In this document: piece by piece, positions 15,308 through 19,806 of the stretch
Numbering within the stretch: the stretch's first letter is position 1
Layout of the letters: every line of letters begins with the position of its first letter
Origin: Dehalococcoidia bacterium
GTDB lineage: Bacteria > Chloroflexota > Dehalococcoidia > SpSt-223
DNA length: 60,481 nucleotides
Reading direction: 5' to 3'
Assembly (NCBI GenBank): GCA_025054935.1
Contig: JANWZD010000017.1
Location: 1 to 60,481, forward strand
Translations under genes and position numbers: made by a program
Notes under the pieces: generated by a model
What the model was told of the DNA's origin: nothing
Database searches by the model: none
The model's input: only the letters and a program-made list of their open reading frames with translations

Positions 15308-17899
15308 TCAGCGCACCGTCAGCGGGCCAAGCTCGATCAGCGGCTCGCCATCCAGCCCCGCAAACAGGCGGTAGCGGCCGGGCAGCACATCGAGGGCAAA
15401 CTTGTGCTGGTCGCGCACGATATCGCCAACCTGCCACGTCGTCAGCGGGGCGAGCCCGTTCGTCACCGGCGCGATCACCGTGCGCACCGAGTTGCCCGCA
15501 TCGTTGCGCACCTCAATGCGGAGCGGCGGGTCACTCGTCGGCCGGCTCTCGGCGCGCCAGTAGAGCGTAAGATGCGCCAAGTCGCCGCTCGAAAAGTCGG
15601 TGGCGCCGCGGTCGAAGCCGAGCTTGTGAAAGTCGTAGCCGAGCAGCCGAAGCGGACCATAGGGGACATCGCGAGGATGCTCAATGAAGAGCTGCTCGAC
15701 GGTCGGCTGCCGCTCGGGGCGGGTGATCGTCACCATGCCGAGCAGAACGCGGTCAGCGATGACGCGGCCATTCTCAAGGATGCCGAGCCGCCTGCCGTCG
15801 CTCGCCCGATAGAGGCCAATCTCGATGTAGTATGCCCCCGGCGGAGTGCCCGCAAACACTGGCAGCCCATAGCGGTCGACAATGGTTTCCCCCGGCGTCC
15901 ACGAATCGGTGGGGCGGCGGCCGCTCCCCGGCTCCGCATCACGCTGCCCCCAAATCAGTTCGGCCGCATCAATCAGGTGGGTGAAAACGGTGTACCGCTC
16001 ATCGACCGGCGCGGTGGCGCGCCAGAAGAGGGTCAGCTGCAGCGCCTCGCCGGGGCGGCTCTCGCTCTGGGCAAGCGAGTAGCCGAGCAGCTCAATCCCG
16101 CGCTCGAACTGGACACGCTCGGGGAATTGGATCGTCCCCGCCTCCGTTTGGATGGGAACGACGTACTGGACGAGCCGAACGCCGCCGTACCAGCGATTGT
16201 AGGCGCGGAAAGCATGTTCGTTCAGCCAACCTTCGACAACCCCGTTCGGGTCCGCCTGCTCGCTCGCCCACAGCACCAGCCAGATCCGCCGCGCGGTGGC
16301 GATCAGCTGCTCGAGCTCGGCGACCGTTCGGGCATCATCGGGCGGACGCTGCGTCGGCAGCCCGATCACCGGGAGCTGGTCCCGATAGTAGTAGTCAAAG
16401 ATCTCGCGCTGGCCCGGGGCATTGAGGACTATGACATCGCCCGGCTGCGAGGTGAGGGCAAGATAGCGAACGAGACCGCGATAGTCATCGCGAAAGTACT
16501 TCGGGTCGTGATAGCTCGCCAGCAGCGCCCGCCCAGCCGCATATTCCTGCCCGCCGACCAGGGCGACCACCACGAGCGTCCCTACCGCGAGCGGCAACCG
16601 GCGCTGCGCCCTCGCAAGCCGACCCGCCATGCGCTGCGCGATCGCGCCTGCCGCCGCCACGCCCGCGCCCTGCAGAAGGCAGAAGGCCGGCACGGAAATG
16701 AGGAGGAACTTGGGGTGAGGGACCACCGGCCGATTGAGCGCCACGCCAAAGAGGGTGAGCGGCGCCGCCACGGCGAGGAGCACGACCGCCGCCACCGCCT
16801 GTGCGCGCCGCGCCTTTCCCGGTCCAGCGATAGACCACGCCGCCGCCAGCACCAGCAGCGCAATCCCCAGCGCTATCGTCTTTCCCGTGACGGTCTGGTC
16901 CCACGCTGGCCCGTAGGCGAAGAAGCGGAAGACCCGCTCCGCGAACGCAAGCGGGCTCAGCCGCTCGGCAGTCACCTCCCAGCTCCGCAGCTGGTTCGAG
17001 GCGTAGAGGAGCCAAGGGATGACCAGCACAATCGCGCCGCCCTGCACTGCCGCCCACGCAAGCCAGCGCCGCCACCAGCGCAGCGGGCTGGGGTGCAGCG
17101 CCACGAACGCGAGGGTCGCCCCGACCATCGCCGTCACGCCGAAGAACTGCGTAAGCACTGCTCCAGCAAAGGCAAGCACAAGCAGCAGCGGGAGCAGCGC
17201 ACTCGGACGCCCGCGGTCCCAGCGCCGCCACCAGAGGAGACTGCCCGCAATTGCTGCCATCCCAAGCAGCGCCATCTGCTCGTACATGCGCGTCTCTTGG
17301 GAGTAGTAGATGAGCAGCGGCGAGACGGCAGCGAAGAATGTGCCAAGCAGCGCCGCCGCCGGACCAAGCAGCAGCCGCCCCACAACCGCGGTGAGCGCAA
17401 CGACCGCGACCCCAGCGAGCACCGAGAGAAACCGCAGCGCATACTCCGTCCGGCCCGCCAGCTCCGCCCAGCCGCGGAGAGCGAGGTAGTAGAGCGGCGG
17501 ATGAATATCTCCGGCTGCCGCCTCGAGGATCGCCGCTGGGGAGCGATAGGTCATCACGACGCTCGCCCCTTCGTCAGCCCAGAGGCTCTGCCCATCAAGC
17601 CGATAGACCCGCAAGCCGAAAGCGAGCAGCAGGATGACCGTCAGGGCGAGAACCGCGAAGCGCGGCTCCCCCCACGGACGCCGAAGCGCGCGAGGAGCAC
17701 TCTCCAGCGGCACTTCTGCAGGATGCCGCGCGTGTCCTCCCTCAGCGCGGCCAGTTAGAACGCTCTGCTGGTCCGCCGCCCGGGGCTGCGTCTTCGCTCG
17801 GCCGCGCCCTCGCCACCCCCATGCAAGAGCGCCGGGAGAGACGCTCCCCACGCCGCGCTGCAGCGCGACATCCGCGCTCCTTCTACCCCACCAGCTCAC
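15308..17899 (-). CDS. GT39/ArnT-like polyprenyl-phosphate-dependent membrane glycosyltransferase with C-terminal beta-sandwiches
   Basis: 863 residues from a GTG at 17899 that overlaps the previous stop (GTGA). The first 78 or so residues are polar and Arg-rich without similarity, so a later start is possible. From about residue 81 a multi-helix membrane domain begins; the first outer loop carries the GT39 Asp-Glu pair (Asp109-Glu110 in SLWADEGASV), followed by HPPLYY. After about ten helices there is an extracytoplasmic part, then two related Ig-like modules, each with a GY(S/D)..., LTL(F/Y)WRA and PG.Y.I/R pattern. It probably transfers a sugar from a lipid carrier to an outer glycan or protein. 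Confidence 0.82.
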   Translation of the reverse strand: MSWWGRRSADVALQRGVGSVSPGALAWGWRGRGRAKTQPRAADQQSVLTGRAEGGHARHPAEVPLESAPRALRRPWGEPRFAVLALTVILLLAFGLRVYRLDGQSLWADEGASVVMTYRSPAAILEAAAGDIHPPLYYLALRGWAELAGRTEYALRFLSVLAGVAVVALTAVVGRLLLGPAAALLGTFFAAVSPLLIYYSQETRMYEQMALLGMAAIAGSLLWWRRWDRGRPSALLPLLLVLAFAGAVLTQFFGVTAMVGATLAFVALHPSPLRWWRRWLAWAAVQGGAIVLVIPWLLYASNQLRSWEVTAERLSPLAFAERVFRFFAYGPAWDQTVTGKTIALGIALLVLAAAWSIAGPGKARRAQAVAAVVLLAVAAPLTLFGVALNRPVVPHPKFLLISVPAFCLLQGAGVAAAGAIAQRMAGRLARAQRRLPLAVGTLVVVALVGGQEYAAGRALLASYHDPKYFRDDYRGLVRYLALTSQPGDVIVLNAPGQREIFDYYYRDQLPVIGLPTQRPPDDARTVAELEQLIATARRIWLVLWASEQADPNGVVEGWLNEHAFRAYNRWYGGVRLVQYVVPIQTEAGTIQFPERVQFERGIELLGYSLAQSESRPGEALQLTLFWRATAPVDERYTVFTHLIDAAELIWGQRDAEPGSGRRPTDSWTPGETIVDRYGLPVFAGTPPGAYYIEIGLYRASDGRRLGILENGRVIADRVLLGMVTITRPERQPTVEQLFIEHPRDVPYGPLRLLGYDFHKLGFDRGATDFSSGDLAHLTLYWRAESRPTSDPPLRIEVRNDAGNSVRTVIAPVTNGLAPLTTWQVGDIVRDQHKFALDVLPGRYRLFAGLDGEPLIELGPLTVR

Positions 17900-19806: not shown

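What the first reader, a model, noticed from the sequence alone, without database searches (positions are those of the whole stretch)
17896..19806. Extracellular glycosidase joined through a membrane helix to a ribbon-helix-helix-like tail
Seen: the GH39/GH5-type catalytic Glu pair (NEPN and AELGW), one C-terminal membrane helix, an Arg cluster, then strand-helix-turn-helix text (WVRVLLP, AELWDELVREV, PPDRRQP, FVIAAVAEALRRRR) matching CopG/Arc-type RHH proteins. Inference: the protein could read glycan state outside and act on DNA or a partner inside, or the RHH fold could simply mediate dimerisation. I know of no described glycosidase with this layout.
Basis: partly seen in the sequence, partly recalled or inferred. 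Interest (0 to 1): 0.62.

Follow-up and report, generated by a model that had tools for sequence, protein, structure and literature searches.

The report
Membrane-bound glycosidase with RHH-like tail
In one genus of hot-spring-type Chloroflexota, a membrane-anchored sugar-cutting enzyme that belongs to a widespread polysaccharide-assembly gene cluster has gained an extra cytoplasmic tail that looks like the small dimer-forming ribbon-helix-helix domain of bacterial DNA-binding proteins; whether the tail only pairs or docks the enzyme, or really reaches DNA, is not settled.

Summary
The gene (17896-19806, minus strand) encodes an N-terminal anchor, a PslG/GH39-type barrel with both catalytic Glu (E196, E318), a beta-sandwich, a C-terminal membrane helix, and a cytoplasmic tail. 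Residues 573-614 align without gaps to Chloroflexota ribbon-helix-helix (RHH) antitoxin-type proteins, are predicted as two helices after a strand-like segment, and are under purifying selection while the flanking linker and C-terminal end are not. No Pfam RHH model hits the tail, so the fold call is strong but not certain (about 0.8).

The tail occurs only in the three known species of this genus. More than 30 relatives, several in the same syntenic cassette (GT4-GT4-GT-C-GH39-PMT-GT2), stop 4-23 residues after the helix. Relatives elsewhere are fused at exactly this point to the PMT or GT2 glycosyltransferase, or to an O-antigen ligase. This makes a glycan-assembly complex the likely setting and the cytoplasmic C-terminus a docking point.

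Best reading: the RHH tail is a homodimerisation or docking module on an assembly-linked glycosidase. Direct DNA reading is possible but weaker: candidate DNA-facing residues and the helix-B cap are not conserved in the third species. New variant of a known kind.

The parts
17896..19806 (-). Whole gene: membrane-anchored GH39/PslG-type glycosidase with RHH-like cytoplasmic tail, 636 aa
   Evidence: ORF and translation; orthologues at 81 and 72% identity in L031 and L032
19735..19785 (-). N-terminal membrane anchor or signal-anchor (about residues 8-24)
   Evidence: Hydrophobic run after KRLR in the sequence; AF2 helix 2-24
18595..19617 (-). Catalytic barrel (about residues 64-404) with Glu196 (19219-19221) and Glu318 (18853-18855)
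   Evidence: Both Glu invariant in A2; best structural match PslG 5bx9, E 2e-22; profile match to PslG 3.9e-15 aligning both Glu motifs
18223..18594 (-). Beta-sandwich, carbohydrate-binding-like domain (about residues 405-528)
   Evidence: AF2 strands 412-527; weak CE2_N Pfam match below cut-off
18106..18213 (-). C-terminal membrane helix (residues 532-567 in the model, the last few being the cytoplasmic Arg cluster)
   Evidence: AF2; sequence
17965..18090 (-). RHH-like tail domain (residues 573-614): strand WVRVLLP, helix A 583-592, helix B 600-614
17899..17964 (-). Unstructured, poorly conserved C-terminal end (residues 615-636)
   Evidence: pLDDT under 50; pN/pS 0.66
19803..21362 (-). Upstream neighbour: multi-pass membrane protein, presumed GT-C glycosyltransferase (no Pfam match)
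   Evidence: ORF; no Pfam family; conserved neighbour in L031-L035
21359..22621 (-). Neighbour: GT4 glycosyltransferase
   Evidence: Pfam Glyco_trans_1_4 4e-28; syntenic
22618..23700 (-). Neighbour: GT4 glycosyltransferase, first gene of the cassette
   Evidence: Pfam Glycos_transf_1 3e-31; syntenic
15308..17722 (-). Downstream neighbour: PMT_2-type GT-C glycosyltransferase (start codon uncertain)
   Evidence: PF13231 5e-11; homologue fused to the glycosidase in L192
14355..15356 (-). Downstream neighbour: GT2 glycosyltransferase
   Evidence: PF00535 5e-24; homologue fused to the glycosidase in L193

Best explanation
This is a PslG-like (GH39-type) endoglycosidase held at the outer face of the cytoplasmic membrane by two helices, as part of a conserved Chloroflexota polysaccharide- or glycan-assembly cassette. 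There it most likely trims or proof-reads the growing glycan, as PslG does for Psl. In this one genus its cytoplasmic C-terminus has gained an RHH-type domain. I infer that two tails form the usual intertwined RHH dimer inside the cell, pairing two glycosidases or docking them to the cytoplasmic side of the glycosyltransferase complex, rather than reading DNA. Shown here: the predicted anatomy, the conserved catalytic pair, the cassette synteny, the natural fusions to glycosyltransferases, the purifying selection on the tail, and its in-register resemblance to RHH proteins. Inferred: enzymatic activity and substrate, dimerisation, and the absence of DNA binding.
For: PslG is the closest solved structure, and both catalytic Glu are invariant. 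The cassette GT4-GT4-(GT-C)-GH39-(PMT)-GT2 keeps its order and strand in L031-L038 and L047, with some members missing in some loci. Natural C-terminal fusions join the glycosidase to PMT_2 (L192), GT2 (L193) and O-antigen ligase (L194, L195) right after the membrane helix, so the C-terminus is where assembly partners attach, and the GT2 fusion places it in the cytoplasm. Tail as RHH. RHH core positions stay hydrophobic in all three species (V579, L/V581, P582, L/V585, L/V589, F601, V602, A605, V/I606, A609, L610) while outward positions vary. Inner-membrane association and catalysis of PslG are needed for Psl production (PMC6813494).
Against: No RHH model in Pfam or NCBIfam hits the tail even at E 10, and Foldseek found nothing for the tail model. 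Profile-profile comparison with an independent RHH alignment was in register but weak: 4 of 200 shuffles scored as high. AF2 was run on a monomer, so the dimer strand could not be seen. R578, the one polar strand residue on the expected DNA face, is kept in two of three species, so DNA contact is not excluded. No experiment exists.
Confidence: 0.5

Rival explanations
1. The tail is a working DNA-binding RHH domain. The protein is a membrane-tethered one-component regulator that couples glycan processing outside to transcription, perhaps of its own cassette, in the manner of ToxR or CadC but with an RHH head.
For: Clear resemblance to RHH antitoxin-type proteins, which typically bind their own operators; R578 on the strand face and an Arg-rich surround; purifying selection; a conserved promoter-proximal block before the first gene, including an 11-base palindrome GAGCGCCGCTC in two of three species.
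Against: The polar strand residue is not kept in L032, position 580 is Leu/Pro/Pro, and the helix-B cap Ser/Asp is lost. The palindrome is imperfect in L032, has 29 matches in the genome, and its backward control has 26. The -10-like element occurs elsewhere in the genome. The syntenic relatives manage without the tail.
Confidence: 0.2
2. The tail is not an RHH domain but a genus-specific amphipathic helical hairpin, arisen by extension of the reading frame, that only binds membrane or partner.
For: No curated RHH family hits the tail; the profile-profile score is marginal; L032 has a strand two residues shorter; Arg/Ala-rich extensions arise easily in a GC-rich genome.
Against: The forward profile finds eleven RHH proteins in register and the backward profile none of the listed RHH places; alignment without gaps across the core with V, P, R, F, A and L kept.
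Confidence: 0.2
3. The tail is a trapped or decaying piece of an antitoxin-type gene that fused by accident and has no function.
For: The nearest sequences are antitoxin-like RHH proteins; restricted to one genus.
Against: Kept in three species whose tails are only 49-80% identical to the window's, with pN/pS far below the flanking linker and end between the two closer species.
Confidence: 0.1

Closest known systems
PslG of Pseudomonas aeruginosa (GH39-type endoglycosidase of the Psl operon)
   Same: Barrel plus beta-sandwich, same Glu motifs, encoded within a polysaccharide-synthesis cluster, associated with the cytoplasmic membrane
   Different: The solved PslG constructs are about 416 residues against 636 here; to my knowledge (not compared in full here) PslG has no second C-terminal membrane helix and no RHH tail; gene neighbours differ; substrate here unknown
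Other Chloroflexota GH39 proteins of the same cassette (e.g. L033, L034, L035)
   Same: Two membrane helices, invariant catalytic pair, same neighbouring GT genes
   Different: They end 7-12 residues after the membrane helix; no RHH tail
Chloroflexota GH39 fusions to PMT_2, GT2 or O-antigen ligase (L192-L195)
   Same: Same glycosidase with an extra module attached at the same point after the membrane helix
   Different: The module is an enzyme of glycan assembly, not an RHH-like domain
RHH antitoxin-type proteins of Chloroflexota (L057, L059, L064, L141, L147)
   Same: In-register strand-helix-turn-helix, 24-37% identity to the window tail for the nine aligned
   Different: Small soluble proteins with their own C-terminal extension; helix-B cap mostly Ser/Asp, which the tail lacks
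Membrane-tethered regulators such as ToxR, TcpP, CadC
   Same: Sensor outside, single helix, DNA-binding-type domain inside (layout only)
   Different: Winged-helix heads, normally at the N-terminus, and no enzyme outside; DNA binding is proven there and not here (recalled, not tested)

Membership tests
GH39 / PslG-like glycosidases | TIM-barrel fold closest to GH39 or PslG | tested here: met
   Foldseek top hits PslG and then GH39 beta-xylosidases
GH39 / PslG-like glycosidases | Acid/base Glu in an NEP motif and nucleophile Glu on a later strand | tested here: met
   E196 and E318 invariant in 16 sequences and aligned with the PslG Glu motifs
GH39 / PslG-like glycosidases | Reaches the Pfam GH39 curated cut-off | tested here: not met
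   PF01229 11.1 bits against a cut-off of 26; hence called PslG-like rather than filed as a GH39 member
GH39 / PslG-like glycosidases | Endoglycosidase activity on a defined glycan | not testable with these tools
   needs purified enzyme and substrate
Ribbon-helix-helix (MetJ/Arc/CopG) superfamily | Strand followed by two helices of about 10 and 14 residues | tested here: met
   AF2 helices 583-592 and 600-615 after a strand-like segment; the strand itself is not assigned in the monomer
Ribbon-helix-helix (MetJ/Arc/CopG) superfamily | Sequence homology to RHH proteins | tested here: met
   Forward profile picks out RHH proteins in register, backward control does not; profile-profile score alone is marginal
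Ribbon-helix-helix (MetJ/Arc/CopG) superfamily | Reaches a curated RHH model | tested here: not met
   No Pfam or NCBIfam hit for the tail at E 10; hence called RHH-like
Ribbon-helix-helix (MetJ/Arc/CopG) superfamily | Structural match to a solved RHH chain | tested here: inconclusive
   Foldseek of the tail monomer returned nothing at E 10; the model is short and about a quarter is unreliable
Ribbon-helix-helix (MetJ/Arc/CopG) superfamily | Intertwined dimer through the strand | not testable with these tools
   no dimer prediction offered
Ribbon-helix-helix (MetJ/Arc/CopG) superfamily | Polar DNA-contacting strand residues and capped helix-B N-terminus | tested here: inconclusive
   R578 in two of three species; 580 Leu/Pro/Pro; cap Gln/Tyr/Leu
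Membrane-tethered transcription regulators | Sequence-specific DNA binding and control of a target promoter | not testable with these tools
   upstream region only weakly suggestive

The most novel reading that the evidence does not exclude
An extracellular glycosidase of a polysaccharide-assembly complex that reports glycan processing directly to DNA through a cytoplasmic RHH head: a one-protein, enzyme-sensing, membrane-tethered regulator.
Probability: 0.14. Interest if true: 0.78.

Novelty: new variant of a known kind. Interest (0 to 1): 0.42.

Why it matters
A glycosidase with an RHH-type tail inside the cell is a layout I found in no paper searched. If the tail only dimerises, it shows RHH folds being reused as plain membrane-protein glue. 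If it binds DNA, it would link exopolysaccharide trimming to gene control in one polypeptide. Beyond the tail, the finding points to a Chloroflexota-wide cassette in which a PslG-like glycosidase is tied, by synteny and by natural fusions, to glycosyltransferases and O-antigen ligases. That bears on the open question of why polysaccharide-synthesis clusters carry a glycosidase.

Tried and rejected
Pfam, NCBIfam and PHROGs scans of the tail: nothing at E 10. PDB sequence search with the tail profile: nothing. Foldseek of the tail model: nothing. hhalign of the tail against 29 independent RHH cores: in register but 4 of 200 shuffles as high, so not used as main evidence. Search for an operator: the palindrome before the first cassette gene is no more common than its backward control and is broken in L032; rejected as evidence. 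Search for another protein with the same tail in 100 class and 400 phylum genomes: none beyond the three orthologues; the other hits are soluble RHH proteins, unrelated proteins or antisense frames. Idea that the tail is an assembly error: rejected, since three independent assemblies carry it. Idea that other membrane RHH proteins exist in the genus: the four PF01402 hits looked at in G000, G001 and G002 show no membrane glycosidase and look soluble.

Full report
What is there. The gene at 17896-19806 (minus strand) reads without interruption for 636 residues, with a GTG start overlapping the stop of the upstream gene. The genome is a Dehalococcoidia-type Chloroflexota; the two nearest named records are Dehalococcoidia bacterium KatS3mg060 (L031) and Chloroflexi HOT.Cluster.3 (L032). 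The protein has an N-terminal hydrophobic anchor, a barrel, a beta-sandwich, a long C-terminal membrane helix (532-567) and a short cytoplasmic tail; mean pLDDT of the model is 82.6.

The enzyme. Structure search puts PslG first (5bx9, E 2e-22, TM-score 0.65 on the target) and then GH39 enzymes. A profile of 16 relatives finds PslG at 3.9e-15 and aligns both Glu motifs. E196 (WNEPN) and E318 (AELGW) are invariant in those 16. The Pfam GH39 model itself stays below its cut-off, so this is a divergent, PslG-like protein. Substrate and activity are untested.

The tail. Residues 573-614 read strand, helix, turn, helix. With only three sequences AF2 predicts helices at 583-592 and 600-615 with pLDDT near 80, and similar ones at lower confidence in the full model. 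Curated RHH models do not hit it. A profile of the three tails, run over 100 genomes, has as its long weak matches mainly small RHH proteins, matched in register: 11 of the 20 matches spanning at least 35 positions. Five of these coincide with places over the PF01402 cut-off. The profile read backwards yields none of the listed places. In the 400-genome phylum search the best match outside the genus is again an RHH protein. An alignment with nine RHH proteins has no gaps from the strand's second half to the end of helix B and keeps V579, P582, R598, F601, A605 and L610 throughout or nearly so; a few residues before the core of two of the RHH inputs were retyped inexactly, which does not touch the core. 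A direct profile-profile test was only marginal, and Foldseek found nothing for the tail. I put the RHH fold at about 0.8.

Selection. Between the window and L031, pN/pS is 0.18 in the tail domain, 0.087 in the barrel, 0.24 in the sandwich, 0.53 in the membrane helix, 0.73 in the seven-residue linker and 0.66 in the C-terminal end. Against the more distant L032 the tail rises to 0.52, so the constraint is clear only between the two closer species. The tail is kept as a domain, but it evolves faster than the enzyme.

Distribution. All three species of the genus have the tail. Outside it, more than 30 relatives with a resolved C-terminal membrane helix stop 4 to 23 residues later, often in a few basic residues. 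The related paralogues in the same genus (L016-L018) also lack it. No other protein in 100 class genomes or 400 phylum genomes carries the same tail. So it is a lineage-specific gain on an old, widespread enzyme; 105 of 400 phylum genomes hold a relative at E 1e-70 or better.

Setting. On the minus strand the gene sits with two GT4 genes and a presumed GT-C membrane protein upstream, and a PMT_2-type GT-C and a GT2 downstream. The same order recurs in L033, L034 and L035, and partly in L036-L038 and L047, all without the tail. In other Chloroflexota the glycosidase is fused, directly after its membrane helix, to PMT_2 (L192), to GT2 (L193) or to an O-antigen ligase (L194, L195); many more relatives have open frames of 1,040-1,250 residues, not examined individually. 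The GT2 fusion places that end of the protein in the cytoplasm, because GT2 domains work there (established knowledge). PslG offers the functional parallel: its catalysis and inner-membrane association are needed for Psl production (PMC6813494), and its loss changes Psl signalling and c-di-GMP (PMC9075953).

Mechanism. The simplest reading is a glycosidase working within a membrane glycan-assembly complex, with a C-terminus that serves as an attachment point. In most lineages this is bare or fused to a partner enzyme; in this genus it is an RHH-type pairing domain. RHH folds are obligate dimers in the known families (established knowledge), so pairing is the default expectation. DNA binding needs polar strand residues and a capped second helix; here R578 is present in two of three species, 580 is Leu/Pro/Pro, and the cap is Gln/Tyr/Leu. 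Several free RHH relatives also have a nonpolar residue at the position of 580, so this counts only mildly against DNA binding. The region before the first gene is conserved, including a -10-like element found elsewhere in the genome and a palindrome that is not enriched; it is no evidence for an operator.

Verdict. Observation confirmed. Interpretation partly supported: RHH-like tail yes, cytoplasmic yes, dimerisation or docking most likely, DNA reading unproven and less likely. Nothing in the open-access papers searched describes a glycosidase with such a tail, though the library lacks most subscription journals.

Noticed in passing
L192-L195 (G117:C28, G240:C89, G129:C31, G120:C1): Natural fusions of the GH39-type glycosidase, right after its membrane helix, to a PMT_2 GT-C, a GT2 and O-antigen ligases (Wzy_C); many further relatives have open frames of 1,040-1,250 residues that may be the same.
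   Followed up: partly
window 14355-23700 and L031-L038, L047: Conserved Chloroflexota cassette GT4-GT4-(GT-C)-GH39-(PMT_2)-GT2, same order and strand, substrate unknown.
   Followed up: partly
window 23701-23750: Block before the first GT4 gene (TCGGCTANACTCCC ... GAGCGCCGCTCGCCGGAG) conserved in three species although the upstream gene differs in L032; GGCTANACTC followed by GGAG occurs at five other places in the genome, so it may be a general promoter element.
   Followed up: partly
L152 (G000:C9:123269-124652), L154: Conserved protein of the genus with an amphipathic start and an RHH-like segment (NVITVRVDDKAIEAIDALISAGVFKTRSEAAAYLIDEGI); probably a soluble RHH regulator.
   Followed up: no
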